From: Chryseolinea sp. H1M3-3
Lineage (GTDB): Bacteria > Bacteroidota > Bacteroidia > Cytophagales > Cyclobacteriaceae
Assembly: GCF_029360725.1 (NCBI RefSeq)
Contig: NZ_JARKMY010000001.1
Span: 372,001-436,000 of the forward strand
DNA length: 64,000 nucleotides
Direction of reading: 5' to 3'
Below, piece by piece: positions 42,170 through 57,796 of this stretch (positions within the stretch are counted from its first letter, which is position 1; every line of letters starts with the position of its first letter). The notes under the pieces were generated by a model, which saw only the letters and a program-made list of their open reading frames with translations, was not told the origin of the DNA and ran no database searches. A program made the position numbers and the translations under genes.

Positions 42170-44977
42170 ATGGCAAAAAAAACACCAGTTGCGAAAACTG
42201 TCGAAGCATTGAAGCACGATGAGGCTAAACGCAAAAATATCCCCACTGCCGAATATCAATCTGTTCTTCAAAAGGAAGAACAAGATCCTATACGGGTCTC
42301 TTATGAACGCAGAAATAGAGATCTTGATCCTCAATTAGTGTGGCGTGGCAAGGATGAGCAAGACTGGAGTGAGCTAGTCGTCCATGCTCCACCGCTTTAT
42401 ATTCAAGAGAAAATTCATCCGAAGGTGTTGATCGATGATTTGCTGCGACAAACGAAGGAGCAAGAATATATGTCGGGCCAAATCATGGCCGATCTTTTTT
42501 CTGATTTCAATGGTATCCCCAAAGGCGTTGATAGGACGGAATTCTATCAGCATGATCAGAATTGGTCGAATAGAATGATCTTGGGCGATTCCTTACAGGT
42601 CATGGCAAGTTTGGCCGAGCGCGAAGGATTAAGAGGAAAGGTTCAGTGTATTTATTTTGATCCACCTTACGGGATTAAATTCAATAGTAATTTCCAATGG
42701 AGTACAACTAGTCGTGACGTAAAGGATGGGAATACAAATCATATTACACGGGAGCCTGAGCAGGTTAAAGCGTTTAGAGATACATGGCGCGACGGTATTC
42801 ATTCCTACCTAACCTACTTGCGTGATCGCATGACAGTTGCGCGAGATTTGTTGACTGATTCAGGTTCTATTTTTGTACAAATTGGTGATGAGAATGTCCA
42901 TCGTGTTAGAACGCTAATGGATGAGATATTTGGCGAGAGCAATGCGATCTCTCTAATCTCATATCCTACTTCCGTTGGTTTGGGTTCGCAATTCGTTGAG
43001 AATGTAAACAATTATATCGTATGGTATGCCAAGGATCGAGAAGCCGCGAGTGGAAAATGCAAGCAGCTATATAAACTTCTTGAAAGAGGTGAGGCGGGTG
43101 CGACGCGTTATTCTAAGATACTTGATGATGATATGAGAGTACACGAAGTATCAAAACTATCTGAAAGTGAGCTTAGTCAGATAATAGAAAATGGAGGACA
43201 CTTCTTCACGGATCAAGGATTGACGTCACGTTCTGCTTCCTCAACCACTCTGTTTGAAGTTATCCATCATGGTCGAGGATATAAACCAACCGCGGGTGGG
43301 TGGCGAACTTCCCAAACCGGAATGAACCGAGTTCAACTCGCAGATAGAATATTAAAGACGTCCTCAAAAATTCGTTTCAGAAAGAACTTTGATGACTTTG
43401 GGGCTCTCTCTACAACAAACAACTGGGATGACGTATCAGGCGGAATTCAAACAAGAAATGATCCAAAAGTGTATGTTGTTCAGACGGCAACAAGTATAGT
43501 CCAAAGATGCATACTTATGGCGACTGATCCGGGTGACTTAGTTCTTGACCCTACCTGTGGTTCTGGGACAACCGCCACGGTTGCAGAACAGTGGGGACGG
43601 CGATGGATAACGGTTGATACTTCGCGAGTGGCATTAGCGTTGGCACGGACTAGGATTATGGGAGCTCGCTATCCATTCTACATTTTGGCCGATTCTAAGG
43701 AAGGTCAAGTCAAGGAGGCCGAGCTAACTCGTAGCACGCCGAGTTCGCAAAGCGTCCATGGTAATATTCGACATGGATTTATCTATGAACGTGTGCCGCA
43801 TATCACATTAAAGTCAATTGCTAATAATTCTGAGATCGAGGTGATTTGGGGTAAGTGGCAAGACAAACTTGAACCCATACGAGCAATGCTCAACAAGACG
43901 TTGAAACAGAGTTGGCACGATTGGGAAATTCCGAGGGAGCCAAGTGAGAAATGGTCCGTTGAAGCAAAGAAATTGCACGACGAATGGTGGAAGGCCAGAA
44001 TTACCCGACAGAAGGAGATTGATGCGTCAATTGCAGCAAAGGCAGAGTTTGAGTATTTATTTGATAGGCCTTACGAGGACAAAAAGAAAGCTCGTGTTGC
44101 CGGACCGTTCACAGTAGAAAGTTTATCACCCCATCGAACACTTGGTGTTGATGAGAACGACGAATTAATTGATCCGCTAAAGCAAAATGTGATGGCTGGT
44201 AGCGACCGCGACAGTTTTGCAAATATGGTGCTTGAAAACCTTAAGACAGCTGGTGTCCAACAAGCTCATAAAGAAGACAAAATCGCTTTTTCATCAGTTG
44301 TAGCCTGGCCTGGAGATTTAGTTTGTGGTGAAGGAAGATACCTTGAAGGCGACAAAGAAAGAAGGGCTGCTATATTCATCGGCCCGGAATTCGGAACTGT
44401 GCTTCGAGCAGATCTCGTGTCCGCCGCTAGAGAAGCTGGCGACGCTGGTTTCGATGTATTAATTTCTTGTGCATTCAACTATGAGGCGCATACAACTGAA
44501 TTTAACAAACTTGGAAGGATTCCGGTGCTTAAGGCACGAATGAACGCCGATCTTCATATGGCCGATGATCTTAAAAACACAGGTAAAGGAAATCTTTTTG
44601 TCATCTTTGGTGAGCCCGATATTAACATTATCAAAGCAAAAGATGATCATATCCAAATTAAGGTAAACGGCGTCGATGTCTTCGATCCAAATACAGGTAA
44701 AGTTCGAAGCGATAATTCAGAAGGGATAGCTTGCTGGTTTATCGACACTGACTATAATGAAGAAAGTTTTTTTGTGCGTCATGCATACTTCCTTGGTGCG
44801 AATGATCCATACAGTGCTTTGAAGTCTACCTTGAAGGCTGAGATCAATCATGAAGCATGGGAGTCCCTTAACAGTGACATCTCGAGACCATTCCCTAAAC
44901 CAAAAACTGGTCGCATTGCCGTTAAAGTTATCAATCACCTCGGTGATGAAGTGATGAAAGTGTTTAAGATCGACTGA
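42170..44977 (+). CDS. Site-specific DNA methyltransferase (beta class, Mod)
   Basis: The 935-aa product is an N6-adenine or N4-cytosine DNA methyltransferase. Motif IV IYFDPPYGIKF (DPPY at 164-167) comes before motif I VLDPTCGSGTTATVAEQWG (about 459-475), the beta-class order used by type III Mod proteins. The intervening 290 residues hold the target-recognition region. An additional C-terminal half (about 500-935) of unknown fold is longer than in most Mod subunits and may contact Res or the helicase. It has an AGGAAG ribosome site and overlaps the next gene in TGATG, so translation is coupled. Confidence 0.92.
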   Translation: MAKKTPVAKTVEALKHDEAKRKNIPTAEYQSVLQKEEQDPIRVSYERRNRDLDPQLVWRGKDEQDWSELVVHAPPLYIQEKIHPKVLIDDLLRQTKEQEYMSGQIMADLFSDFNGIPKGVDRTEFYQHDQNWSNRMILGDSLQVMASLAEREGLRGKVQCIYFDPPYGIKFNSNFQWSTTSRDVKDGNTNHITREPEQVKAFRDTWRDGIHSYLTYLRDRMTVARDLLTDSGSIFVQIGDENVHRVRTLMDEIFGESNAISLISYPTSVGLGSQFVENVNNYIVWYAKDREAASGKCKQLYKLLERGEAGATRYSKILDDDMRVHEVSKLSESELSQIIENGGHFFTDQGLTSRSASSTTLFEVIHHGRGYKPTAGGWRTSQTGMNRVQLADRILKTSSKIRFRKNFDDFGALSTTNNWDDVSGGIQTRNDPKVYVVQTATSIVQRCILMATDPGDLVLDPTCGSGTTATVAEQWGRRWITVDTSRVALALARTRIMGARYPFYILADSKEGQVKEAELTRSTPSSQSVHGNIRHGFIYERVPHITLKSIANNSEIEVIWGKWQDKLEPIRAMLNKTLKQSWHDWEIPREPSEKWSVEAKKLHDEWWKARITRQKEIDASIAAKAEFEYLFDRPYEDKKKARVAGPFTVESLSPHRTLGVDENDELIDPLKQNVMAGSDRDSFANMVLENLKTAGVQQAHKEDKIAFSSVVAWPGDLVCGEGRYLEGDKERRAAIFIGPEFGTVLRADLVSAAREAGDAGFDVLISCAFNYEAHTTEFNKLGRIPVLKARMNADLHMADDLKNTGKGNLFVIFGEPDINIIKAKDDHIQIKVNGVDVFDPNTGKVRSDNSEGIACWFIDTDYNEESFFVRHAYFLGANDPYSALKSTLKAEINHEAWESLNSDISRPFPKPKTGRIAVKVINHLGDEVMKVFKID

Positions 44978-47052
44978 TGGAATTTCGTATAGCCGATACG
45001 TTCACAGATAGTCTTGCTCGTCTTACAACGGACGAGCAAAAGGCTGTGAAAATCACGGTTTTTGATCTGCAACTTAATCCAGCCAATCCAGGAATGAGTT
45101 TTCACAAGCTGGATAAAGCAAAAGACAAAAATTTCTGGTCCGTTCGAGTCAATCGGGATATTCGAATAATTGTCCACAAAAGCGAATCCAGTCTGTTGAT
45201 TTGTTATGTAGATCATCACGACAAAGCTTACGACTGGGCTGAACGCCGAAAATTGGAAGTTCATCCTAAAACAGGTGCTGCCCAGTTAGTCGAAATTAGG
45301 GAGACTGTTAAGGAAGTCTTTGTCCCTGTTTACGTTCAAGAAGAAATAAAAACGTCAGCCGTAAAGCAGAAGCTTTTTACCGACTTTACCGATGAAGCAC
45401 TTCTTACCTACGGTGTGCCAACGGAGTGGCTGAACGATGTTAGGGATGTCAATGAAGATACACTGCTAGAACTTGTTGATCACCTACCCTACGAGGCTGG
45501 TGAAGCTTTGCTTGAACTGGCAACAGGCGGAATGCCGCAAGTGGTGAAACCGGTAGAGAAGGGTGAAGATCCATTTACTCATCCAGATGCTCTCCGCAGA
45601 TTCCGTGTGATGAGCAATCTTGAGGAACTTGAACGAGCGCTAGAATTTCCTTGGGATAAATGGGCGATATTCTTGCACCCGGATCAAAGACAATTGATCG
45701 GAAAGAATTTCTCTGGGCCTGCCCGTGTTTCAGGTTCCGCTGGAACAGGCAAGACGGTAGTCGCTCTGCATCGAGCGGTGTTTCTCGCACGGGCTAACCC
45801 GGATGCCCGAGTCTTACTAACGACCTTCTCCGAAATTTTAGCAAACTCCCTGAAAGTAAAACTACGTCGGTTAGTAGTTAACGAACTGCCTCTTGCGGAA
45901 AGAATAGAGATATTTCCAATCGATCAAATTGGAGTACGCCTTTACAAAGCGAATATCGGAACACCAAAAATTGTAACACGAAAGCAAATACTCGCGTTAT
46001 TGAGCAAAGCTTCTTCTGAAGTAGAGGCTAATAAGTTTAGTCGGACATTCTTTTTATCGGAATGGGAACAAGTTGTTGATGCGTGGCAATTGACGACGTG
46101 GGAGAATTACCGAGATGTCAAACGGTTGGGAAGGAAGACCAGGCTGCCAGAGCAACAACGGCAGATTCTGTGGACAATCTTCAGTAAAGTTATTCAGCAG
46201 TTAAAGAAGGATGGATTAATAACCTATGCTGGAATATTCAATGAACTTGCCGACTTCTTTTCTCAAAGTCAAAAATCTCCTTTTGACTTTGCTGTCATTG
46301 ACGAGTCCCAGGATATAACAGTATATCATTTGCGTTTCCTGGCAGCTCTTGGTAGAAATAATCCAAATGCGTTGTTTTTCGCAGGGGATCTGGGTCAACG
46401 TATTTTCCAACAGCCATTTTCTTGGAAGTCCCTCGGCGTTGACGTTCGTGGAAGATCGACCACCTTAAAAGTGAACTATCGAACATCTCACCAAATTAGA
46501 ATGCAATCAGACCGCTTGCTTTCCCCTGAGGTAACAGATGCCGATGGCAATATTGAGAAACGTAGTAATACCGTTTCCGTTTTCAACGGACCTCCTCCAA
46601 TAATTAAAACGTTTTCAACTAGCGCTGAAGAAATAGAATTTGTCAGTGACTGGGTTTTAAAGCTTCGACAAGAAGAGGTTTTCGCGCATGAGATCGGAGT
46701 GTTTGTTCGGTCCTCCAATCAGCTCAATCGTGCTATTGATGCGATAGGAAAAACTGGTGTTCCGTATAAAGTCTTAGATGAATCCGTCGAGGCAATCAGT
46801 GGACAGATACCGATATGCACGATGCACCTAGCCAAGGGGTTAGAATTCAAAGCTGTAGTAGTGATGGCTTGTGATGATGAGGTTATCCCCCTTCAGGAAC
46901 GTATTGAAACTGTTGCAGACGACGCAGATCTGGAAGAAGTCTATAATACGGAACGTCACCTTCTGTATGTAGCATGTACGCGCGCTCGTGATCAGCTTCT
47001 ACTCACTAGTGTAGAACCATCCTCCGAATTCCTGGACGATTTGAAACAATAA
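44977..47052 (+). CDS. RelE-like domain fused to UvrD/Rep-type SF1 helicase
   Basis: The 691-aa product begins with a RelE/YoeB-like fold (about 1-97): EFRIADTFTDSLARLTTDEQKAV, then FWSVRVNRDIRIIVHKSESSLLICYVDHHDKAYDWAERR. An SF1 helicase follows: Walker A GSAGTGKTVVALHRAVF (252-268), Walker B FAVIDESQDITVYHLRFL, VNYRTSHQIR, and VACTRARDQLLLTS near the end. It is shorter than full UvrD, and no separate nuclease domain is evident. Its start overlaps the Mod stop by one base, tying it to the restriction-modification operon. The RelE-like part could act on RNA or serve only as a binding module. Confidence 0.88.
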   Translation: MEFRIADTFTDSLARLTTDEQKAVKITVFDLQLNPANPGMSFHKLDKAKDKNFWSVRVNRDIRIIVHKSESSLLICYVDHHDKAYDWAERRKLEVHPKTGAAQLVEIRETVKEVFVPVYVQEEIKTSAVKQKLFTDFTDEALLTYGVPTEWLNDVRDVNEDTLLELVDHLPYEAGEALLELATGGMPQVVKPVEKGEDPFTHPDALRRFRVMSNLEELERALEFPWDKWAIFLHPDQRQLIGKNFSGPARVSGSAGTGKTVVALHRAVFLARANPDARVLLTTFSEILANSLKVKLRRLVVNELPLAERIEIFPIDQIGVRLYKANIGTPKIVTRKQILALLSKASSEVEANKFSRTFFLSEWEQVVDAWQLTTWENYRDVKRLGRKTRLPEQQRQILWTIFSKVIQQLKKDGLITYAGIFNELADFFSQSQKSPFDFAVIDESQDITVYHLRFLAALGRNNPNALFFAGDLGQRIFQQPFSWKSLGVDVRGRSTTLKVNYRTSHQIRMQSDRLLSPEVTDADGNIEKRSNTVSVFNGPPPIIKTFSTSAEEIEFVSDWVLKLRQEEVFAHEIGVFVRSSNQLNRAIDAIGKTGVPYKVLDESVEAISGQIPICTMHLAKGLEFKAVVVMACDDEVIPLQERIETVADDADLEEVYNTERHLLYVACTRARDQLLLTSVEPSSEFLDDLKQ

Positions 47053-47054
47053 CG

Positions 47055-47518
47055 ATGTCTAAAACGAACTCAACTCAATTCCGTCATCACGCCAGCTTTG
47101 GAAAGAGAATGGAGTATTTCGTTTTGGGTCGAATGCTAAAGGAAGGCATTGATTTATATGTTCCACTTGTTGATGATTTTGGAATTGATGCTGTATAAGA
47201 AAGCGTGACGGAACATTTATTGAAGTGCAGATAAAAGCACGTTCAGACGAAGTCAAGTTTGGAGATGCTGCACTTTTCGCTGCTATCACTCACGAGATAA
47301 GAAGCAACTATTTCTTTGTTTTTTATTCAGCACGGATGGACAAGACATGGATACTATCTTCCGAAGAATTTTGTACAGAAAGTGTATTAAACAAGAGTGG
47401 TAAAAATATCGGAAAGCGCTCGATTTGGTTTAATGGTAAGAGTACGAAGAGCAATACGGAGCAGGCTAAAACCGGGTATGATAAGTACCTTGATCCTGAT
47501 TTTATGAGGTTTAAATGA
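47055..47518 (+). pseudogene. Frameshifted Mrr-like PD-(D/E)xK nuclease gene
   Basis: The ATG two bases after the helicase stop opens 47 codons (MSKTNSTQFRHHASFGKRMEY...VDDFGIDAV) that end at TAA at 47196. One base out of phase, the protein resumes at once as IRKRDGTFIEVQIKARSDEV and runs to 47518. Joined, GIDAVIRKRDGTFIEVQIKA forms the D-x(n)-Q-x-K core seen in Mrr-type nucleases and related PDDEXK proteins. A single-base deletion near 47193-47197 explains the break. It could be a true pseudogene, a programmed frameshift or a sequencing error. Joined length would be about 154 residues. Confidence 0.85.
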
Positions 47519-47562
47519 ATGCGGATTCCAAATGACTTTAACTAGCGTGGTTGAATCACCCA

Positions 47563-48372
47563 ATGGGCAAGAAGAGAATAAATATTCCGGAGACGATTGC
47601 AACTGAAATACAATTCCTTTCAGATAGGACGTGCTGCGTCTGTAACATACGTGGGAATACAATTCAATTGCACCACCTCGATGAAGACCCGTCTAATAAT
47701 AATATTGAGAACATCGCCGTACTTTGCCTTGAATGTCATGCCGAAAGTCAAATAAAGGGTGGTATAGGGCGGAAACTCGATGCCAACCAAATCAAGCGTT
47801 ATCGGCATGATTGGATACAGCGAGTACAAGAAAGGAGAAAACGAGCTGATGAGATCGCGTCAATTCGTAGCGTGACGGGAACCGTACGATCACTTTTAGA
47901 ACAAGAGCATTTGAATGTAAGTGATGATTATTTTACTAATGATGATCCGGAATTGCTCGAAAAATATCTCAACGAAATAATAGTTGTTCACAAAGCGCAA
48001 CTCACAATAGCTCAAGTTGAGTGGGACTCGGGCGTTAATTCCCGAATGACTAACGGTAGCTATACTGTCATTGATTTTTATTCTGAAGTTTTGATCGAGC
48101 TTGCAACATTTTATCCAAAGTGGCATTTCAATAAACAATCACCAAGTCATTTTTTTAGCGAGCTAATATCATCCAGGTTTCAATGGCATCGATCTATGCT
48201 TGAACCAGGGGGTAGCGGAACAGGCGGCACTATCATTTCGACCATGGCTGGGGGAGGGGTTATGGATGATCTCAGCAGAATGATAGTTGACATGGTGAAT
48301 GCATTATTGTTTTCATATGACCTTGATAGAAAAATTGATTTTCTAAATTGGAAAAATAGTTGGCTTGACTAG
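47563..48372 (+). CDS. HNH-motif protein with C-terminal helical domain
   Basis: The 269-aa product starts MGKKRINIPETIATEIQFLSDRTCCVCNIRGNTIQLHHLDEDPSNNNIENIAVLCLECHAESQIK, an HNH fold with Cys pairs CCVC and CLEC, His of LHHLD and Asn of NNIENI. The remaining 180 residues (no known domain) include a Gly-rich loop, GGSGTGGTIISTMAGGG, and a possible helical pair. An upstream TTG would add four residues; ATG is preferred. It lies in the rightward operon 44 bases after the frameshifted gene and could be a nuclease effector or a modification-dependent endonuclease. Confidence 0.82.
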   Translation: MGKKRINIPETIATEIQFLSDRTCCVCNIRGNTIQLHHLDEDPSNNNIENIAVLCLECHAESQIKGGIGRKLDANQIKRYRHDWIQRVQERRKRADEIASIRSVTGTVRSLLEQEHLNVSDDYFTNDDPELLEKYLNEIIVVHKAQLTIAQVEWDSGVNSRMTNGSYTVIDFYSEVLIELATFYPKWHFNKQSPSHFFSELISSRFQWHRSMLEPGGSGTGGTIISTMAGGGVMDDLSRMIVDMVNALLFSYDLDRKIDFLNWKNSWLD

Positions 48373-48408
48373 CTAACAGTCCGATGCACTAACTCACTTT
48401 TAAATCAT

Positions 48409-49227
48409 ATGACGCCAAGGCAGAAAGAAATAGGCGACAAACTTTTACAATTTCTTGCCAGAAAAGGCCAGGCAAACACAGATGAATATTTCCATCATTT
48501 GACGAGGGAGTGCCAGTTTAACGACTGGAGTGATCAAGGCGCAATTGGAATGGTCAAGGCAGAATTATTAACACTGGATTTGATCGAACAATTAGGACAG
48601 GTCGATAACTACATTAAACTCACGCCATATGGAGTAATGGCAGAAAAAACCGGAATTGCACAATGGATGGCACGAAAACAATTTCGCCAAGAAAGAAATA
48701 TAACGAGCAAAGAAAAGCGAATCGCCATTCTGAAAGGCCTATACGAAAGGAAATTTGATGGAAAAATTTATGACCTCCGACCTTTCTTACCAACAGCAAC
48801 TTTGACTGAGTTGTATCAAATCGCGAAAGCACTAGAAAATGATGGCCTGATAAAAATGGTTGCGAGTAAAGACAGCGTTCATGGAGAAATTACCTTAAGC
48901 GGAGTCGAAGTTATCGATGCTGAGGAAACAGACCTGGCGTATCAGCCAAAAGATAAGTTTAATCCTGATGAGTCGCGAACACTCAAGGCAAAAATCGACG
49001 AACTCGGCGACCGGTTATCCAGAATGGAGGTCGGTCAGCAAATCACCTATGACGATTTGATCCATGAATTGGAGGAACTCAAAAAGCTAGTGGATGTATT
49101 GGGCAAAAAGAATTGGCTGCAAATATTAAAGGGAAAACTAGTGGATGCTGGGTTTGGGGTGATAGCTGATCAAGTGAGTGAACTAATAATTGAAATTTTT
49201 AAGGAAGAGAAGTTCTTGAAAAACTAG
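48409..49227 (+). CDS. Hypothetical protein with winged-helix-like segments
   Basis: I do not recognise a family. The 272-aa product has two stretches that look like winged helices, about 1-85 (KEIGDKLLQFLARKGQANTDEYFHHL...LTLDLIEQLG) and 95-160 (KRIAILKGLYERKF...LTELYQIAKALENDGLIKM), then a coiled-coil region (about 185-235) and a short helical end. It may regulate or dock DNA-binding partners. It lies 36 bases after the HNH gene and is the last gene of the rightward operon. Confidence 0.7.
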   Translation: MTPRQKEIGDKLLQFLARKGQANTDEYFHHLTRECQFNDWSDQGAIGMVKAELLTLDLIEQLGQVDNYIKLTPYGVMAEKTGIAQWMARKQFRQERNITSKEKRIAILKGLYERKFDGKIYDLRPFLPTATLTELYQIAKALENDGLIKMVASKDSVHGEITLSGVEVIDAEETDLAYQPKDKFNPDESRTLKAKIDELGDRLSRMEVGQQITYDDLIHELEELKKLVDVLGKKNWLQILKGKLVDAGFGVIADQVSELIIEIFKEEKFLKN

Positions 49228-49362
49228 CCTGTTATTCAGTGAACTTCCTTTAGCTATTAATGGTTTGTGCGTCGAATTATTTTGTTTAGTTAGGGTAATT
49301 AATCGTTTCGTCGTTCCAGACAATATATGAATTTCATCATTAAGGAAGACCGGCAAATATTG

Positions 49363-50472
49363 TTATTGCATTTCGACAAGTAAATAATTTGTACTTCGTC
49401 CACCCGACGAGTCCTTAACTAAGATTCCTTGATCTACAAGATCGTTGATGTCACGAAGCGCAGTATCTGATGAAGTCTTCGTGATCTTCGCCCATTTCGA
49501 TGTATTGAGTTTCCCTTCGAAACCGTCCAGAAGTTTATTGAGCATCAGCCTTTGTCTCTCGTTTAACGGTGTCACCGCATGCTTATCCCAGAAATGAGCT
49601 TTCTTCATTACGCCAGCGAGTGTTTCCTCGGTGCTGCTTAGCGCTCGGTCTAAGCAAGAAAGAAACCATTCAAGCCAAGCTGTTATATCGAGCGTACCTT
49701 TTTGAGTTGCCTCAAGCATATCGTAATATGCTTTTCTTTCTCGCTGGATTTGTGCTGACATACTGTAAAATCTTTGATGTGTATTGTCGGCTCGTGCTAG
49801 TTGCATATCAGTTATCGCTCTGGCTATACGCCCATTGCCATCGTCAAAGGGATGGATCGTCACGAACCAAAGATGTGCGACACCAGCCTTTAAAACCGGG
49901 TCCAGGTTCATATCACCATTGAACCACTCAATAAATTTTGACATTTCTTGATCAAGCAAGTCGGCACCCGGCGCTTCAAAGTGAACACGCTCACAGCCTA
50001 AGGGCCCAGAAACAACTTGCATCGGCCCATGGCTGTTATCTCGCCATGCACCCACTGTGATTTTATACATGCTGCTTCGCCCGGTAGGAAAAAGTGCAGC
50101 ATGCCAACCAAATAAGCGTTCATCCGACATCGCTTTAATATAATGCTGGGTTGCATCAAGCATCATCTCCACGACGCCCTCAACATTACGATCAGCCTGA
50201 ACCAGACCGCCAATATCCATGCCCAATCGGCGAGCGATCGAGGATCGAACTTGATCAGGGTTAAGTATTTCGCCTTCGATTTCACTGGACTTGAGAACGT
50301 CGAGGGTTAAGGTTTGCAAGACCGCTTCCGCCTGGAGGGAAAATCCCAGACCTTCCATCCTTCCAAGTAGTCGTCCCTGACGGTGCCTTACAGCAGCTAG
50401 AAAATGGGCAAGGTGCTCCTTGTCCCATTTGAAAGAGGGCCATTCGGCAATTTGGTGTATATAACGAGTCAT
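49363..50472 (-). CDS. Fic-domain protein with DUF4172 and winged helix
   Basis: The 369-aa product has a DUF4172-type N terminus, a Fic domain with the catalytic motif HPFDDGNGR (about 207-215), and a C-terminal winged-helix-like region (about 310-365, LNTSKWAKITKTSSDTALRDINDLVDQGILVKD). The N-terminal SSEIEGE matches the (S/T)xxxE(G/N) inhibitory helix of class II Fic proteins, which blocks ATP binding. Fic enzymes usually transfer AMP to a protein hydroxyl; the target is unknown. The ATG at 50472, right next to an operator, is preferred to one 30 bases upstream that would begin inside it. Confidence 0.9.
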   Translation of the reverse strand: MTRYIHQIAEWPSFKWDKEHLAHFLAAVRHRQGRLLGRMEGLGFSLQAEAVLQTLTLDVLKSSEIEGEILNPDQVRSSIARRLGMDIGGLVQADRNVEGVVEMMLDATQHYIKAMSDERLFGWHAALFPTGRSSMYKITVGAWRDNSHGPMQVVSGPLGCERVHFEAPGADLLDQEMSKFIEWFNGDMNLDPVLKAGVAHLWFVTIHPFDDGNGRIARAITDMQLARADNTHQRFYSMSAQIQRERKAYYDMLEATQKGTLDITAWLEWFLSCLDRALSSTEETLAGVMKKAHFWDKHAVTPLNERQRLMLNKLLDGFEGKLNTSKWAKITKTSSDTALRDINDLVDQGILVKDSSGGRSTNYLLVEMQ

Positions 50473-50475
50473 TCG

Positions 50476-50545
50476 CCGCACATTATGCGGTAAATGTAGC
50501 ATTGATTCACCGCATTGTCAACAACTTTTTCCGCACATTATGCGG
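50476..50545 (-). promoter_or_regulatory. Fic promoter with two palindromic operators
   Basis: Reading leftward, TTGACA (50521-50516) and TACATT (50498-50493) are separated by exactly 17 bases, a sigma70-type promoter. The palindrome CCGCACATTATGCGG occurs twice: at 50476-50490, over the likely start point and 3 bases before the fic ATG, and at 50531-50545, upstream of -35. A half site CCGCA lies at 50510-50514 between them. The C-terminal winged helix of the Fic protein is the obvious candidate repressor. Confidence 0.75.
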
Positions 50546-50802
50546 TGAATAGTGGGCTTAATCGCCGCAAGCCGAGGTTGGAATAAAGATTTTGTCCCAA
50601 GGATGCTACAACCGTTTCAGGGAGATTTGAGAAACGATTATAGCGACGATATTGGCAAACCTTTTTCATAGGGTCAATTTATTGGTCGAAGGAAAGGACA
50701 TCTCCCTAAATCTCCTAGGCTAGTACTAGATCAATTGGATGGCACGAAAAAGATATTGTAAATTGGAAAGCAAGCACAATTAGACAAGAGGGATAAATTG
50801 CA

Positions 50803-51303
50803 ATGTCCTTACAAATACGAATTCAAGCGGACGATTTTTTTAAGGCTTATCATGCGTTAGAGAAAAACAGCAATAGTGATACTATGGCAGTTATGGGACC
50901 AGGCATTGTATGTTTATCTTTTTCGGTCGAGCTTTATCTTAAGGATCTTCATTTTGCGCTAACAGGAAAAGCGCCGCGCGGCCACGACGTCTATAAACTT
51001 TTTGAAACGCTACCAGCAGAGACTCGACAAGAAATCTTTACTCACAAATCTATTAGTAAAAATCCTTTTATGACCAGGGGTAATATGTTCTCGATCCAAT
51101 ATCATAGTCGAGCCTATAGTGCGTACGAGAGGTTTATTGATCAAATGAAAACAATAAGTGATGGCTTTGAAAAATGGCGCTATTCCTATGAAAGCTGCAC
51201 GCTAAAATATGATTCTTACTTTGCCATCGCTCTTATAGAGGCAATTAAATCAACGGCAGATAGTATACGACAGCAGCCCTTTAAGAAACGAGCTAGCGAA
51301 TAG
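50803..51303 (+). CDS. HEPN-like domain protein
   Basis: The 166-aa all-helical product opens SLQIRIQADDFFKAYHALEK and contains FSVELYLKDLHFALTGKAPRGHDVYKLFETLPAETR, the pattern common to HEPN-like proteins (Glu-x-x-Leu-Lys helix followed by a G...HD...L..LF turn). A clear R-x4-6-H catalytic motif is not visible, so it may be a non-catalytic HEPN partner. The next gene, an HNH-motif protein, starts 23 bases downstream, suggesting a two-gene unit. Function unknown. Confidence 0.75.
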   Translation: MSLQIRIQADDFFKAYHALEKNSNSDTMAVMGPGIVCLSFSVELYLKDLHFALTGKAPRGHDVYKLFETLPAETRQEIFTHKSISKNPFMTRGNMFSIQYHSRAYSAYERFIDQMKTISDGFEKWRYSYESCTLKYDSYFAIALIEAIKSTADSIRQQPFKKRASE

Positions 51304-51326
51304 AGTCGAACATTAACGCAACTTCT

Positions 51327-52595
51327 TTGGAACAGATTTATACTTACAAATTCTCGCTCCTTTCACTCTCCGGTGAAGTTAATCTTCAAGTCTCATCTTC
51401 CAACGGTCCGGGAATCGAAACATTCATGGATGACTTTCGCATAATATTTTCCAGACAAGACAGCGAAAGTGGAGGCTTTATTATCAATGCATTTCAGGTC
51501 TACTCACCCGAGATTGAGAAAAAGATCAACGAGCTGATCGAAAAGTATGGTGAAATTGATCCGACCATTAATAAAATACCTGCATACTTCCGGAAACTTA
51601 AGGCAAACGAAAATTTTGTTTTTGTCCCCCCTGGCTATGGGATTGATCAATCTCATAGAATATTGTTATACAATTACCTAAAACACTTAGAAGAAGGTGT
51701 GCCGTTTGAACCCTTACAAGCGGCAACAGATAGTTTATTCAAAGAGATTTTTGCAAAGTACGATGTGAATTCATTCGGCGATAAACGAATATCGATTGGT
51801 GAGCCTGACAAGAAAAAACGCGTATGCCGATTTTGCAACAACAAACGAGTTCCGCTAACTTTTAAGAATAAAGCACATGCAATCTCTGAAGGCTTAGGCA
51901 ACAAAACCGTTGTACTAAACGATGAATGTGATGGATGCAATTCAGAATTCAGCAAGAACACTGAGCAGGACATGATCCAGTATTTGTCATTGTACCGGAC
52001 GTTCTTCGGTGTAAAGGGAAAGGGTGGAACAAAGAAATTCTCTGGCACGAATTTCAAAGTCGACGACGAAGGGGTAGCAATATTCAGCATCCTTGAAGAA
52101 GAGCGGAAAGGAAATGATCCTTTAGATCAAGTCGTATCGATAAATACGGACAACCCGATCGTCTTACAGAATATCTATAAAACGCTCTGCAAGTACTTTC
52201 TTAGTGTGATCGACACAAAATATCTGAAGCATTTCCAAGGGACAATTGACTGGATCAATGGGGAAAGGCAGATTGATCGCCTTCCAGTGATTGCTGAAGT
52301 GGTAACGTATCATTTTTTTTCGTCGCAGCCAAAGCTGCTTACATATATCAGGAAAGAGAACAACAGCGACATCCCTTTCGCTGTTGGCGAATTCCATTTC
52401 ACCTGCATTGTCTTTGTCTTTATCATACCGCTATGCGATCAGGACAGTTCTCAATATTTGGAAGACGACTATAAGAAGTTCTGGGATCTCTTTCACCATT
52501 ACAACAAAAGTAAAGGCTGGTCCTTCAAAGATTACTCCAGTCAGAAGGCGGCAAAATTCTCGTTTCGCGTGAAATTTGAAAAGTCCGACGTGTGA
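51327..52595 (+). CDS. HNH-like protein with Cys-rich zinc frame
   Basis: The 422-aa product has in its middle (about 165-215) CRFCNNKRVPLTFKNKAHAISEGLGNKTVVLNDECDGCNSEFSKNTEQ, an HNH-type frame with Cys pairs CRFC and CDGC, His in KAHAIS and Asn in CNSEFS. The flanking parts have no recognised domain. No ATG is near; the TTG at 51327 is the probable start because the next in-frame Met lies at about residue 32. It is linked to the HEPN-like gene 23 bases upstream. Confidence 0.78.
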   Translation: MEQIYTYKFSLLSLSGEVNLQVSSSNGPGIETFMDDFRIIFSRQDSESGGFIINAFQVYSPEIEKKINELIEKYGEIDPTINKIPAYFRKLKANENFVFVPPGYGIDQSHRILLYNYLKHLEEGVPFEPLQAATDSLFKEIFAKYDVNSFGDKRISIGEPDKKKRVCRFCNNKRVPLTFKNKAHAISEGLGNKTVVLNDECDGCNSEFSKNTEQDMIQYLSLYRTFFGVKGKGGTKKFSGTNFKVDDEGVAIFSILEEERKGNDPLDQVVSINTDNPIVLQNIYKTLCKYFLSVIDTKYLKHFQGTIDWINGERQIDRLPVIAEVVTYHFFSSQPKLLTYIRKENNSDIPFAVGEFHFTCIVFVFIIPLCDQDSSQYLEDDYKKFWDLFHHYNKSKGWSFKDYSSQKAAKFSFRVKFEKSDV

Positions 52596-52973
52596 TTATG
52601 ATTTATGGATTAAAATCTGATCGTTTCTGATAGATCAAAGTCTTCCCGCATTTTACTGGAGTTATCAGACCCTCAGTTCGAAATGAATAATGAATAAATG
52701 ACTCGTTTGAGGGATCATCCAACTTCGGTTTGCGTATAACGGATTGTGAAGCGTAGGATTAATATCAGGTATTTAAGGCTAGGTAGAGTCGTTTGCTTTC
52801 AGCCTGATGATTTGGAAAGGGTTAGGCATGATTTTCACGCTTCTTCTAATGCGGAGGCGTCATTTTACATTTTGAATGTTCCTTTTTTGTAAATTTAGAT
52901 TGGTACTGTACTGACGTTGGGAAAAAACTGAGTGACCATTTAATTTCATTATCCTCCTAAGCATTTAGATCGT
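52596..52973. other. Intergenic stretch, no gene seen
   Basis: This AT-rich gap of about 380 bases ends with the upstream region of the next membrane protein gene. I see no terminator hairpin, tRNA or repeat of note. Confidence 0.5.
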
Positions 52974-53768
52974 ATGGACAAATTTGACCTGACTGAAAGT
53001 TTGCGAATTTATATCCCAGGCGTTTACTGTACGACCATTACCAATTACTTAGCAAACCTCAATTTAAGTCCCGGGGGCATAGGTGTTTTAGCAATATTTG
53101 TTGGTCTTTTCATCCATTCATTTGGATTTGCTGAGCGGTTCAAATCGACCTATATAAAATATGGCCATCGTTTTATCTTAAAGACGCACCGTCATAACAT
53201 GTTTGTCGAGAGGGCAGAAATTTTTAGGCAAAAGTTCAAAAATTCCAGGGCAGAGTACGAGGTATTGAAATATTTGCAAACGTGTGAAACGGACTCTTTT
53301 GACCGATCTGTAAATGTACTATCACAAACGCTCATGGCATTCGACGCAGGCAGGCATCATATCCAGGAAAATAAAGAAATGCGCCTTCAGAGCACGTTGG
53401 GTTACATGAAATTTCTTTTAGGATTGATATCATTTGTGGCATTTGTTCTTTGTATCGTCCCGTACATATTTGATTTTAGAATCAGCTATTATAAATCAAT
53501 ATTTTATGCCGGGTATGAGTGGTTGGACTTGTTTATACTGTTTTTTCTCTTTCTACTTTTTATTCATGGGGCAATCAGAGCGAAACAGCGATCGTTGGAT
53601 TTCGAAAAGAGGCTTTATTTGAATTATACGGCAGAAGACATTAAGCAGCTGGAATTTTTAGTTCTATTTTATTTGCGTCAGAGGGCTATAAATTCATTGA
53701 CAAATTCTAATTCGGAATTGGACAACGGGGCTAATCTGGCAAAAACAGCGGCTCCTACGAGTAGCTAG
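52974..53768 (+). CDS. Hypothetical membrane protein
   Basis: The 264-aa product has three predicted membrane segments, about 35-50 (GIGVLAIFVGLFIHSFGFA), 145-165 (FLLGLISFVAFVLCIVPYIF) and 182-205 (LDLFILFFLFLLFIHGA), with a charged cytoplasmic-type region of about 90 residues between the first and second. I do not recognise a family. It stands alone between the HEPN/HNH pair and the first attachment-like site. In defence islands such orphan membrane proteins are often effectors, but nothing in the sequence proves this. Confidence 0.7.
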   Translation: MDKFDLTESLRIYIPGVYCTTITNYLANLNLSPGGIGVLAIFVGLFIHSFGFAERFKSTYIKYGHRFILKTHRHNMFVERAEIFRQKFKNSRAEYEVLKYLQTCETDSFDRSVNVLSQTLMAFDAGRHHIQENKEMRLQSTLGYMKFLLGLISFVAFVLCIVPYIFDFRISYYKSIFYAGYEWLDLFILFFLFLLFIHGAIRAKQRSLDFEKRLYLNYTAEDIKQLEFLVLFYLRQRAINSLTNSNSELDNGANLAKTAAPTSS

Positions 53769-53953
53769 GTGCGTATTGTATAGATACCAGTTGGTAATAA
53801 GATGACCAAATTTAATCCATTTTCGAAAATTGATTAAGTGAATTGATGCTATTAACAGCTGTGCCTATCGTTCTAAGATAACACCTTCGAATGGCCCTCT
53901 ACCCTTGGCGATTTTCTAAACTGTTCTTGCATTAACTCAGCTTACCAGCTATA

Positions 53954-54202
53954 GTAGCACCGTAGTAGCACCGAGAAATTTTCGGAGTCAGAAACTTTCA
54001 TCTATCCCTTTGAAGTGGAATGATCTGCAGACATAGGCTGGTTAGGTTCGAATCCTCTCTACCCGACCATTGAATCTATATATTTCAAATACTTAGCTTA
54101 AAAATAGTCACATTGCTCTAATCAAAAATTTCATTTAAAATCAGGTGTATATAAAGTACTGGGATGGGCTCCCTATTTGAAAGGTAGCACCAAAGTAGCA
54201 CC
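53954..54202. other. Attachment-like site A (arm pair, tRNA-end core, arm pair)
   Basis: A direct pair of GTAGCACC starts at 53954 and 53965, a second pair at 54184 and 54195, each with 11-bp period. Between them at 54047-54071 lies a 25-bp core beginning TTCGAATCC and ending CTACCCGACCATT, the T loop, T stem, acceptor strand and CCA of a tRNA. The same arrangement recurs at 58649-58889. No full tRNA is present. It looks like an attachment site of a tyrosine recombinase, with both arms. Confidence 0.8.
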
Positions 54203-54268
54203 AAATCTGATCTGTTACGCAAACTCCAAGTATTTCAAAGCGATTCACACAGGGTAGAGTGGTAAAAG

Positions 54269-54874
54269 ATGACTGAAGCGATTTTTGGTTTTCTTGGTGT
54301 ATTGATTGGCTCAGGTATTACTTGGTTTCAAACTGTTTGGGTGAGAAAGCAAGAGCTGGAACGAAGTGCCAGATACCTTGCAATTCGCATTGCATGCATT
54401 CTTGATAAATATGTTGAGGACTGTGCTGCTGTGGTCAGAGATGACGGGCTGTCTTACGGACAGCGCAATGTAGAAGGATGTTTGGAACCGCAAATAAAAG
54501 CACCAGGTCCTCCAGTTTATCCAGCTGATGTTGACTGGAAAAGCATTGATCATGAGATGATGTATAAGATTCTGTCCTTTCCTTCGGATGTTGAGGGAGC
54601 CGAAGGAATCATTAGCGCAGCTGGAGAGGTTGCAAGCCCCCCTGATTATGAAGAGTGGTTTGAAGAACGTGCATTTTGGTATGCGCAGTTTGGATTAGCA
54701 GCGCACGCGTTGGCAGGAGATTTGTCTAAAAAATACGATATTCAAAAGAAAACTTATAAGGACTGGAATCCTGTAACAGAACTTAAAAAGGAGTTGGAGA
54801 AACTTCATCAAAGACGCGGGAAAAGATTTGAGAAGTATAAGCAACAAGTAGATAAAGTTTTAAAATCAGTATGA
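54269..54874 (+). CDS. Hypothetical protein with one N-terminal membrane segment
   Basis: The 201-aa product has an N-terminal membrane helix (about 3-21, AIFGFLGVLIGSGITWFQ) followed by a soluble, Glu/Lys-rich domain of unknown fold with a coiled-coil-like C terminus (LKKELEKLHQRRGKRFEKYKQQVDKVL). No family recognised. Its stop overlaps the start of the Abi_C gene (ATGA), so the two are translationally coupled. It is the first gene after attachment-like site A. A membrane-tethered partner for the Abi_C protein is a reasonable inference. Confidence 0.72.
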   Translation: MTEAIFGFLGVLIGSGITWFQTVWVRKQELERSARYLAIRIACILDKYVEDCAAVVRDDGLSYGQRNVEGCLEPQIKAPGPPVYPADVDWKSIDHEMMYKILSFPSDVEGAEGIISAAGEVASPPDYEEWFEERAFWYAQFGLAAHALAGDLSKKYDIQKKTYKDWNPVTELKKELEKLHQRRGKRFEKYKQQVDKVLKSV

Positions 54875-55701
54875 GTTCGTTGACAGCCAGAGAAAAAGCA
54901 CGATTGGAAAAGTTATTCGATATGGCCGGTGGCTATGTACTACACTTTTCTGACTCAACAATTGCTACATTCTTTTATGATGCTGTTGATATCGATATTC
55001 ATGATGAAAAGTACTGCGGCAACGGCCGTTCCAAGGCTAAAAAGCTCCGTGAGTTTTGGCGATTAGAAAATGATTATTTAGTAGGGAAAGCTACGCAAGC
55101 AATGATTGAAGAGGCAGAAGAAAAGTTGTTTTCTTCATCCTCGTTCTTGACCAGTGTCGATAGAGAAGCGGAGCAAGAAAGGAAACAGCTAATTGAGCCT
55201 TGTAAAGCAATTGCTACTCGTCTCCTGTCTGGCCAAGTGAACTTGGACCACCTAAAAAGCACTGCAACAACCTTTGATGCAAAACATTTGGCTGAACAAA
55301 TCCGCAGAATTGAAAGCTCTATCAACGATGATCCGGCATTAGCAATAGGGACAGCCAAAGAGCTAATTGAAACTTGCTGTAAAACTATTCTTGCTGAGCG
55401 TGGCAAGCCTGTTGCAGGCACGCCAGATATTCCAACTCTCACCAAGGCAACATTAAAAGAACTTAACTTGGTTCCAGAGGGTATAAATGAGCAAGCACGT
55501 GGTAGTGATGTTATTAAGCGACTACTTCAAAATTTGGGGACTATTGGTAATGGTCTTGCTGAATTGCGTGGTCTGTATGGCACTGGGCACGGAAAAGATG
55601 GGAGAGCCACTGGCTTGATGGCACGACATGCTAAGCTGGCTGTTGGTGCCGCGGCGACATTAACTACATTTCTGTTTGATACACATAAGGAGACTCCATG
55701 A
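54871..55701 (+). CDS. Abortive infection protein with Abi_C domain
   Basis: The 276-aa product ends in an abortive-infection C-terminal domain (about 150-270): ALAIGTAKELIETCCKTILAERGK, GLAELRGLYGTGHGKDG and LMARHAKLAVGAAATLTTFLFD, a pattern that is HEPN-related and common in phage-defence proteins. The N-terminal 110 residues have an unknown fold. It overlaps the membrane-protein gene by four bases. Abi proteins stop growth or kill the infected cell; a trigger is not known. Confidence 0.85.
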   Translation: MSSLTAREKARLEKLFDMAGGYVLHFSDSTIATFFYDAVDIDIHDEKYCGNGRSKAKKLREFWRLENDYLVGKATQAMIEEAEEKLFSSSSFLTSVDREAEQERKQLIEPCKAIATRLLSGQVNLDHLKSTATTFDAKHLAEQIRRIESSINDDPALAIGTAKELIETCCKTILAERGKPVAGTPDIPTLTKATLKELNLVPEGINEQARGSDVIKRLLQNLGTIGNGLAELRGLYGTGHGKDGRATGLMARHAKLAVGAAATLTTFLFDTHKETP

Positions 55702-55768
55702 GAGCTATCGGTGGAGGTTCCGCTTTCTAGTGCCTTTATAAGAATTACTATATAAGGCCATCAGCATT

Positions 55769-57796
55769 CTATTTAACAATTTCGCCGACAATGTGCTTTA
55801 TCTCGTCGGTATAAATGCTTTTAACGGATAACCAAGAAGCTAAACTGTCACAAAAACTGATCATTGCGTTTAAGTCTTTTGAGCTAGTTTTTGTATACTC
55901 CTCTATAGCTCCCATCTTTAGCACGAAAATGTTATTTGCATATAGACTATCAATCTTTACATCGACATCGGAGCGACGTAGTCGTACTTCATTGACGACT
56001 TCGCGTTTTTGCAACTCACAAAGCTTTATATAATAGTCGAGTAAAGGTTTCCAGAGAGACCTCTTTGGCTTTTTCAAGAATTCGGTATCAGATGCGAGAG
56101 TGCGATGCAGGAATTCAAGTCTTTGCAGCTGAGGCTCCGCTAAGCTATCAAGTTTTGCTTGTTTCAGAACGCCTTCAACGGCGTCTTTCTCATTTTTCGG
56201 AATTATAGTCTGCCCTAAGACTTCTAAATTGAAAACATTATCAAAATCAGCAACAAAGTAGACTTTAAGGCCGAACCCTTCGAAGAATAGCTTCCATTTT
56301 TTGAAATTCCCTTTTCCGCCAATATCCAATATCGCGACTTCTTGCGATAAATTTGGCGCTAACTCTTGAAAGACTGCCCGAAAAAAATAACGATCAGTGT
56401 CTCCTTCAACGAGTATTACCTTTTTTGCAAAGAAGGCGTACGTTGATCTTGTATTATCTAGAATCTTGATGAGTGTCTTTTGATCAGATCTCAAGGTAGG
56501 GGATCTAATTATCGTATAGTTGTCGTCGTCAAGGGCGAACCGCTTCACTCGATCTATTGTCTTTGAGCTAATTAAAGCTTCGGAATGCGTGACAATTATA
56601 TACTGGCAGTTCTGTTCAGAATTCAATTTTTCAATGATGTCCAGATATTCATGCTGGAATTGATAATGTAAGTGAATTTCAGGCTCATCGATAATTACAA
56701 CACCACCTTTGAGTTGGCCACGGCCATACGCTTCAAAAATCAAATGAATTATTGCTTTTTGACCTGCACTGAGACTGTTTATATCTCGAAGGATTTTATT
56801 TCTCTTTGTATCAATTAGATGGAACGTATAAGACCAATTTGATTTTTTAATAAGGCTTATTTCTACTTTTAAATTTATTAGGGAAAGTTTTTGGTTAATT
56901 AAAAGCAGGAACGGTTCTTGATTAGCAATTCTCGTAGCTTCTTGATTATTCACGTTTGTAAATATGAGATCATAATGCCGCTCGGCAATTCTTAGGCGAA
57001 CAAGATTGAAAATTGGTGGCTCTGCTTGCTCGTTTGAGTTGGCACTTTTTCTAAACTCATTTCGTCTAATTTCTTGAATTTGGTTGGCTGCCTCTTTTGA
57101 TAGTGAAACTAAAGGTGTAAAGCTGTGATAGTTTCTGTAGCTGCTTATTAGGGTAAATGACTCGTGTAAGTTAGGTAGTTGGTCATTTGTATGATCTTGA
57201 TTATAAATTTCTATGAGTCGCTTGTAGAAGTCATACCGAACCAGATATTGAAATCCTGGATCACTTTGATTGCCGGTGGTAAATGAGAAAGTCTTATTTG
57301 AATCATTCAGTGTGATTTCAATTGTAAAGGTCTTAGTACTGTATCTAAAGTCCAGAGTGCCTAATCCAGAATATAGTCCGGATGCGGCATCCAGCTTACC
57401 TTTGTTCTGCTCAAGTATAGTTAAATTGTTCTCGTCAATGTCGTCTAGCGTAATTTGTAATATGATCTTCTGTGGCTGATTTTCAGTGTTCCAATTGGGT
57501 TCGAGCCTAAAGCCTTGAAAGCTGTCGTTGTGGTTGTATGCGTGGATTATTTGCTTTTTTTCGTTAGAAACGATGTCATCTTTTTGGGTGTATAATTCTG
57601 TATTGATGTTATAGGGGACAAAGAGAACCTTTTTAAAAATGAAGTTTATTACTTCTAGCGCAGTTGATTTGCCGGCGCCATTTTGTCCTATAAGAATATT
57701 GAGGCCACTATCAATCGTTATTTTTGGAGCTAGCGAGACATCATCATAATGTCTGAAGCTCAACACATTTGAAATTTGGAGATAGTCGATTTTCAT
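55769..57796 (-). CDS. OLD-family ATPase/TOPRIM nuclease
   Basis: The 675-aa product has an ABC-type ATPase (Walker A IGQNGAGKST at 36-45, signature SLSAGQKA at 341-348, Walker B VVIIDEPEIH with D370 and E371, His404 in VTHSE) and a C-terminal TOPRIM domain (VEGDTD with Glu464, VADFDN with Asp517 and Asp519). This is the OLD nuclease layout. No UvrD-type helicase is adjacent, so it is not an obvious Gabija (GajA/GajB) pair; class 1 OLD is more likely. It converges with the Abi_C gene, 67 bases apart. Confidence 0.93.
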   Translation of the reverse strand: MKIDYLQISNVLSFRHYDDVSLAPKITIDSGLNILIGQNGAGKSTALEVINFIFKKVLFVPYNINTELYTQKDDIVSNEKKQIIHAYNHNDSFQGFRLEPNWNTENQPQKIILQITLDDIDENNLTILEQNKGKLDAASGLYSGLGTLDFRYSTKTFTIEITLNDSNKTFSFTTGNQSDPGFQYLVRYDFYKRLIEIYNQDHTNDQLPNLHESFTLISSYRNYHSFTPLVSLSKEAANQIQEIRRNEFRKSANSNEQAEPPIFNLVRLRIAERHYDLIFTNVNNQEATRIANQEPFLLLINQKLSLINLKVEISLIKKSNWSYTFHLIDTKRNKILRDINSLSAGQKAIIHLIFEAYGRGQLKGGVVIIDEPEIHLHYQFQHEYLDIIEKLNSEQNCQYIIVTHSEALISSKTIDRVKRFALDDDNYTIIRSPTLRSDQKTLIKILDNTRSTYAFFAKKVILVEGDTDRYFFRAVFQELAPNLSQEVAILDIGGKGNFKKWKLFFEGFGLKVYFVADFDNVFNLEVLGQTIIPKNEKDAVEGVLKQAKLDSLAEPQLQRLEFLHRTLASDTEFLKKPKRSLWKPLLDYYIKLCELQKREVVNEVRLRRSDVDVKIDSLYANNIFVLKMGAIEEYTKTSSKDLNAMISFCDSLASWLSVKSIYTDEIKHIVGEIVK

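What the first reader, a model, noticed from the sequence alone, without database searches (positions are those of the whole stretch)
49363..50545. Fic protein likely to repress its own promoter
Two perfect copies of CCGCACATTATGCGG bracket a sigma70-type promoter (TTGACA, 17 bases, TACATT), with a half site between, and the Fic protein ends in a winged helix. This gives a simple self-limiting circuit. The sigma70-like promoter also suggests origin outside Bacteroidota.
Basis: partly seen in the sequence, partly recalled or inferred. Interest (0 to 1): 0.6.

Follow-up and report, generated by a model that had tools for sequence, protein, structure and literature searches.

The report
Fic toxin-repressor with conserved operator array
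A bacterial Fic (AMP-transferase) gene in a phage-defence island sits behind a six-part DNA binding array that recurs before its relatives in nine phyla and varies together with the protein's own DNA-reading helix, so the toxin very probably switches off its own gene; copies of the same array parts without the gene also turn up in phage genomes.

Summary
In detail: two perfect CCGCACATTATGCGG copies (50476-50490, 50531-50545) flank TTGACA-17-TACATT on the minus strand. They are part of a larger structure. The unit is an 11-bp half-site, TGCGGNGAWTA; three form a module (> N9 < N5 >, counting 10-mers), and two modules 55 bp apart cover the promoter and the fic start codon. At least three half-sites stand before 77 of 79 named relatives, against 1 of 800 control stretches; trained on Bacteroidota alone the matrix finds 51 of 55 others. 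In 50 fic-bearing genomes, 38 of 39 exact operator pairs lie at such fic genes. Recognition-helix residues 335 and 339 rank first and second of 296 columns in covariation with half-site positions 5 and 6; a sister-pair test is weaker. Self-repression is well supported but binding is untested. Origin outside Bacteroidota is not supported. Close precedents are CccR (proven Fic autorepressor) and CbFic2 (same domains, sequence preference unknown). Unexpectedly, exact operator pairs and modules occur in many viral contigs without fic; phage decoys are possible but untested.

The parts
49363..50472 (-). fic gene, 369 aa: DUF4172 domain (4-85), Fic domain (118-225, HPFDDGNGR, inhibitory SSEIEG) and C-terminal winged helix (305-365)
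   Evidence: Pfam DUF4172 E 2e-34 and Fic 3.2e-15; PADLOC SoFic 1.6e-46; AlphaFold model; best fold 8cil, TM 0.83-0.90
50559..50569 (-). half-site 1 (distal module, TGCGGCGATTA)
   Evidence: PWM from 79 other loci, 16.6 bits
50541..50551 (+). half-site 2 (distal module, TGCGGTGAATA)
50525..50535 (-). half-site 3 (distal module, weak, TGCGGAAAAAG)
50504..50514 (-). half-site 4 (proximal module, TGCGGTGAATC), in the -35/-10 spacer
50486..50496 (+). half-site 5 (proximal module, TGCGGTAAATG), overlaps the -10 box
   Evidence: PWM 13.6 bits
50470..50480 (-). half-site 6 (proximal module, TGCGGCGAATG), includes the fic start codon
   Evidence: PWM 15.5 bits
50493..50521 (-). fic promoter TTGACA-17-TACATT
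   Evidence: position conserved in relatives
50470..50569 (-). whole operator array: two modules, 55-bp period

Best explanation
A solitary class II Fic toxin (DUF4172-Fic-wHTH, matching the SoFic phage-defence model) represses its own promoter. Its C-terminal winged helix reads an 11-bp half-site, TGCGGNGAWTA. The dimer, joined through the DUF4172 helix, grips inverted half-sites; three half-sites at fixed spacing make a module, and two modules about 5.2 helical turns apart cover the upstream flank of the -35, the -10 box, the start of transcription and the start codon, so bound Fic shuts out RNA polymerase and keeps the toxin scarce. Shown here: the array, its conservation, its specificity for fic genes in fic-bearing genomes, its covariation with the recognition helix, and the predicted fold. 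Inferred: binding, repression, dimer occupancy, and (from CbFic2) that DNA binding favours the dimeric, deAMPylating and hence harmless state.
For: Unbiased 8-mer count: TGCGGAGA in 56 of 79 upstream stretches, 2 in controls of one stretch per locus. At least 3 half-sites in 77 of 79 named loci against 1 of 800 control stretches. Cross-validation between phyla: 51 of 55 and 23 of 24, controls 0 of 550 and 0 of 240. Consensus-free geometry: inverted N9 pairs in 91 of 106 loci against 60 of 525, 34-bp direct repeats in 72 of 106 against 20 of 525. Specificity: 38 of 39 exact operator pairs in 50 fic-bearing genomes lie at such fic genes, one of them decayed; the strict pattern finds nothing in 24 of the 50. 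Covariation: residues 335 and 339 rank 1-2 of 296 columns for half-site positions 5 and 6 among 86 TGC-type loci, and 1-2 for position 5 after reduction to 74, 57 and 39 sequences; examples CSKDTAIRDI with TGCRAC 4 of 4, CSHDTALRDI with TGCGTA 2 of 2. A divergent clade (ATATRD-type helix) uses TGAG or TGAC half-sites in like geometry. No widely shared neighbour gene. Catalytic motif in 104 of 105 and inhibitory motif in 105 of 105 proteins.
Against: No binding or expression data. The sister-pair test gives p 0.028 for residue 335 (rank 16 of 249) and p 0.43 for 339 (rank 139), so part of the covariation may be shared ancestry; for position 6 residue 335 falls to fourth at the strictest reduction, and for position 7 it leads only before strong reduction. 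Two of 79 loci lack three half-sites (L076, L111). Six of 13 exact pairs in 296 genomes of the same phylum are not at a fic 5' end, and many viral copies have no fic nearby, so something besides autoregulation may use the site. Which half-sites one dimer spans is unknown. The DNA-bound-is-harmless step rests on CbFic2 with random DNA.
Confidence: 0.87

Rival explanations
1. Another regulator, coded elsewhere in the host or the element, binds the array and controls fic.
For: Exact operator pairs exist without any fic nearby in viral contigs and at a few bacterial places, three of them about 130-260 bp downstream of genes that I read as AbiEii (L118, L123, L448).
Against: No neighbouring gene is shared by more than 5 of 80 fic loci; the array follows fic through nine phyla; its bases covary with the Fic recognition helix more than with other Fic columns. 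A regular-expression search found no Fic-like recognition helix in the 56 orphan loci, but it is weak: it also missed the divergent DUF4172-Fic in L246 and L316.
Confidence: 0.07
2. The array is bound by Fic but mainly to tune the enzyme (DNA-induced dimer, deAMPylase state, local sink), with repression a by-product.
For: CbFic2 is proposed to change from AMPylation to deAMPylation on DNA-induced dimerisation (PMC10628234; section 13 and the first of two parts of the Discussion read); six half-sites is generous for simple repression.
Against: The proximal module sits on the -10 box and near the start codon in most loci, the classical place for a repressor; the cccR promoter rises 3.3-fold in the deletion (PMC9755527).
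Confidence: 0.05
3. The repeats are a DNA or RNA structure (recombination site, hairpin, REP-like element) that only happens to lie before fic.
For: Perfect inverted repeats with a 7-9 bp centre resemble crossover sites (recalled); orphan copies exist.
Against: The third half-site at N5, the narrow range of distances to the start codon, promoter overlap and covariation with the wHTH are unexplained; only two places in the host genome.
Confidence: 0.01

Closest known systems
CccR of Yersinia pseudotuberculosis (Fic + C-terminal HTH, PMC9755527; abstract, passages and Discussion read)
   Same: Class II Fic with C-terminal HTH, shown by footprint, EMSA and reporter to repress its own promoter through inverted half-sites near -35 and -10; dimer needed.
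   Different: Different half-site (AGATAATCAT, one inverted pair with N26). Here six half-sites, N9/N5 modules repeated at 55 bp. In the window the gap between half-sites 2 and 4 is also 26 bp, perhaps by chance. CccR is a T6SS effector; that was not examined here.
CbFic2 of Coxiella burnetii (PDB 8cil, PMC10628234; abstract, passages, section 13 and part 1 of the Discussion read)
   Same: Same DUF4172-Fic-wHTH architecture, 42-43% identity in the structural match, TM 0.83-0.90; DNA binding reported.
   Different: Random DNA was used and its authors call for work on a specific sequence; binding outside the HTH contributes. Its promoter was deliberately not fetched here.
SoFic / EcSofic anti-phage Fic (PADLOC SoFic; PMC12249575, passages read)
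   Same: PADLOC SoFic model matches (1.6e-46); class II Fic in a defence island.
   Different: EcSofic has a 47-aa antitoxin AS1 downstream; the 57-aa frame at 49183-49356 has no counterpart better than E 0.69 in 105 loci. Promoter control of Sofic was not seen in the passages read.

Membership tests
DUF4172-Fic-wHTH proteins (CbFic2 type) | N-terminal DUF4172, Fic domain, C-terminal winged helix | tested here: met
   Pfam hits, model, 8cil best fold
DUF4172-Fic-wHTH proteins (CbFic2 type) | Intact HPFx[DE]GNGR motif and class II inhibitory [ST]xxxEG | tested here: met
   HPFDDGNGR and SSEIEG in the window protein; 104 of 105 and 105 of 105 in the set with relatives
SoFic anti-phage defence system | Match to the PADLOC SoFic model and defence-island setting | tested here: met
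   OLD/Gaj-like, Abi_C, PDC-S67, ZorE-like and helicase neighbours
SoFic anti-phage defence system | Protection against phage | not testable with these tools
   needs plaque assays
Fic-HTH autorepressors (CccR-like) | Operator half-sites overlapping own promoter | tested here: met
Fic-HTH autorepressors (CccR-like) | Direct binding and repression | not testable with these tools
   only indirect: covariation and specificity
Type II toxin-antitoxin (Fic/Doc with separate antitoxin) | Adjacent conserved antitoxin gene | tested here: not met
   no neighbour of 80 aa or more shared by more than 5 of 80 loci; the one small frame tested has no counterpart. Other small genes under 80 aa were not compared

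The most novel reading that the evidence does not exclude
Phages carry the toxin's operator without the toxin as DNA decoys. Incoming, replicating phage DNA would bind Fic and hold it as the dimeric deAMPylating form, disarming an abortive-infection enzyme; a DNA counterpart of RNA decoys known against ToxIN (recalled). For it: at least 120 viral stretches with the exact N9 pair and 69 with N10, against 6 for N7 and 4 for the reversed pattern; 72 of 80 fetched N9 loci are not near fic; the 11th base, not required by the search, is A or G in 124 of 132 arms; 56 of 80 three-part modules have no Fic start within 400 bp; in one phage exonuclease family the module arose in place by point changes, including synonymous ones (ATA 10 of 11 against 1 of 48; GCG 11 of 11 against 3 of 48). 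Against it: N10 is common in viral contigs but hardly above control at fic loci (19 of 106 against 59 of 525); orphan pairs exist in bacterial genomes too; some viral orphans may be relics of lost fic; hosts are unknown.
Probability: 0.15. Interest if true: 0.9.

Novelty: new variant of a known kind. Interest (0 to 1): 0.63.

Why it matters
It gives a concrete predicted operator, with a partial reading code between helix residues 335/339 and half-site positions 5-6, for a Fic family in which DNA binding has been measured but whose specific sequence was left open (PMC10628234). It makes three questions testable: whether defence Fics without an antitoxin gene are kept quiet by self-repression, whether operator DNA changes their catalytic direction, and why phages carry the operator alone.

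Tried and rejected
Rejected: the 15-bp palindrome as the binding unit; origin outside Bacteroidota; the 57-aa downstream frame as an AS1-like antitoxin; a promoter recognised by consensus alone; a shared regulator gene next door.

Led nowhere or unresolved: what the orphan viral operators do. I gave 82 of 109 listed neighbour frames to the family searches; they are mixed phage genes (DNA polymerase, helicase loader, RusA, endonuclease VII, baseplate), no family in more than 3 of 82. Outside called genes lie 24 of 66 orphan N9 pairs, 16 of 56 N10 pairs and 27 of 44 three-part modules, against about 15% of random positions (crude gene calls); no promoter-side bias was seen. Some are probably relics, since similar phages carry fic beside the same module (inferred by eye). 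N10 loci were not checked for fic.

Rows dropped: L109 (no upstream DNA) from the 80 named loci; L024, L009, L017, L020, L019 from the loci (no motif or start found, or too little upstream); of 106 loci, four without a module, eight off register and L035 (stop in frame), leaving 93; L132, off register in the TGC set, was taken out. One search examined 80 of 83 stretches (those listed). In some searches 50 records or genomes were given per call, not all that I had.

Full report
Observation. In the whole host genome the relaxed palindrome and a relaxed operator pair occur only here. The ATG of the listed ORF (50502) lies directly upstream of the -10 hexamer; relatives start at the residue matching ATG 50472.

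What the DNA unit is. The unit is TGCGGNGAWTA. It comes as > N9 < N5 > (10-mer counting), twice. Among the 79 named loci, 60 of 65 scored module distances are 52-56 bp (which looked only at 38-62 bp); in a divergent clade they are 44-45 bp. In the window the half-sites start at 50559, 50541, 50525, 50504, 50486 and 50470. The proximal module overlaps the -10 box; in loci that I classed as non-Bacteroidota the N5 gap is purine-rich (consensus aa.gg, ribosome-site-like) and the -10 region reads ATAAT, in Bacteroidota TATATTT.

Is it more than chance. A family search fetched 80 named loci, capped; the tree tool labels them as ten phyla, many being metagenome bins. An unbiased 8-mer count gave TGCGGAGA in 56 of 79 upstream stretches (control 2). 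A matrix found at least three half-sites in 77 of 79 (misses L076 and L111, the latter the only Nitrospinota row, so nine phyla), against 1 of 800 control stretches. Because it was trained on the same loci, I repeated it across phyla: 51 of 55 and 23 of 24, controls 0 of 550 and 0 of 240. Without any consensus, inverted pairs at N9 stand in 91 of 106 loci (60 of 525 controls; neighbouring odd spacings score likewise because they share the same centre) and 34-bp direct repeats in 72 of 106 (20 of 525).

Who reads it. In 93 of 106 loci the half-site consensus, found by geometry alone, was compared with every Fic column. For positions 5 and 6, residues 335 and 339 rank first and second among 86 TGC-type loci (296 columns); both lie in the predicted recognition helix 335-347. 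Among all 93 they rank second and first for position 5, and first and third for position 6, of 315. Other positions are less clear: position 3 only separates the two clades, and positions 4, 7, 9 and 10 give mixed ranks. After thinning to 74, 57 and 39 sequences position 5 keeps 335 then 339; position 6 keeps 335 first twice and then fourth. A disjoint sister-pair test (42 pairs) supports 335 weakly (p 0.028, rank 16 of 249) and 339 not at all (p 0.43). The divergent YNWQ clade, with ATATRD-type helices, uses TGAG- or TGAC-type half-sites with the N9 spacing. Other Fic-HTH subfamilies show other upstream repeats, some no better than shuffles. No neighbour frame of 80 aa or more within 1.5 kb is shared by more than 5 of 80 loci.

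Specificity. In 50 of the fic-bearing named genomes there are 39 exact N9 pairs in 26 genomes; the strict pattern finds none in 24. Of the 39, 34 are at the known fic (my matching of coordinates), 4 at second copies of such a fic, one decayed, and 1 (L448) beside a gene that I read as AbiEii. In 296 genomes of the window's phylum there are 13: 7 before a DUF4172-fic (the window's included), 1 just after one, 1 at a decayed copy, 1 before another Fic near AbiE-like genes, and 3 elsewhere (gene names there by reading); the reversed pattern has none.

The protein and its setting. The model (pLDDT 89.9) matches CbFic2, 8cil, with TM 0.83-0.90. Catalytic and inhibitory motifs are intact. PADLOC calls it SoFic. 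Around it lie a DNA methylase (by reading), a UvrD helicase, an AbiJ/Abi_C gene, PDC-S67, an OLD-like gene, a ZorE-like HNH and, below Pfam cut-offs, HEPN and HNH_5 matches. Relatives are on 433 plasmid records at E 1e-20 (422 with at least 80% cover); named phages hold only 5 partial matches at E 1e-10.

Mechanism. Negative self-regulation: Fic dimers on the modules block the promoter. CccR shows the principle experimentally (PMC9755527). Whether DNA-bound Fic is also catalytically reversed, as proposed for CbFic2 (PMC10628234), is inference.

Host 16S rRNA: Pedobacter 83% and Sphingobacterium 82% over full length, Bradyrhizobium 75%, among 16 genomes, one without a match. GC of fic is 47% against 42% for the window, so transfer within this mobile family is possible, but nothing points outside Bacteroidota.

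Unexpected: orphan operators. Of 80 fetched N9 loci 8 are within 400 bp of a fic start. The three-part module occurs in 83 stretches; of the 80 examined, 24 lie near a Fic match (two of these only 24% identical) and 56 do not, though in 3 of these a Fic match lies further off. 50 orphan-bearing records, some fragments, were searched whole: 4 hold any Fic. The unforced 11th base follows the Fic matrix (A or G in 124 of 132 arms for N9, 107 of 112 for N10). Against a simple link to Fic, N10 is hardly enriched at fic loci (19 of 106 against 59 of 525). In a phage exonuclease family the module lies in coding sequence of the same length in relatives lacking it; 11 of 59 distinct sequences have at least two half-sites, and their codons differ towards the operator at synonymous sites too; these 11 were chosen by half-site score and are related, so this is one case, not eleven. 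Decoy, relic and unknown-regulator readings remain open.

Novelty. Searches for Fic with operator, autorepression, palindrome, own promoter or DUF4172 (listings, some cut to the first 10 or 20) showed CccR as the only Fic autorepressor that I recognised and no DUF4172-Fic operator; the library is open-access only, so this is not proof of absence.

Noticed in passing
viral loci L159-L238, L283-L341, L345-L413: Exact Fic operator pairs or three-part modules in many viral contigs without fic; far above reversed and N7 controls.
   Followed up: partly
L118, L123, L448; L291, L336, L339: Operator pairs about 130-260 bp downstream of genes read as AbiEii in three bacterial loci, and modules beside AbiEi-type genes in three viral loci.
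   Followed up: no
L172, L301, L307 and homologues L451-L530: A 44-bp Fic operator module lies inside a phage exonuclease gene and seems to have arisen by point changes without indels.
   Followed up: partly
L149, L151-L155, L157: Other Fic-HTH subfamilies have their own, different repeats upstream, some at shuffle level.
   Followed up: no
window 42170-57796: Defence island: methylase (by reading), UvrD helicase with a HigB-like N-terminus, ZorE-like HNH, weak HEPN and HNH_5 matches, PDC-S67 plus Abi_C, OLD/Gaj-like ATPase.
   Followed up: no
L295, L305, L326: Three-part operator module about 110 bp from a BrnT-like toxin frame (name recalled from the sequence, not from a search).
   Followed up: no
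L246, L316: A three-part module 15 bp beyond the 3' end of a divergent DUF4172-Fic gene (34% identity) in viral contigs; L117 has a pair just after a fic too.
   Followed up: no
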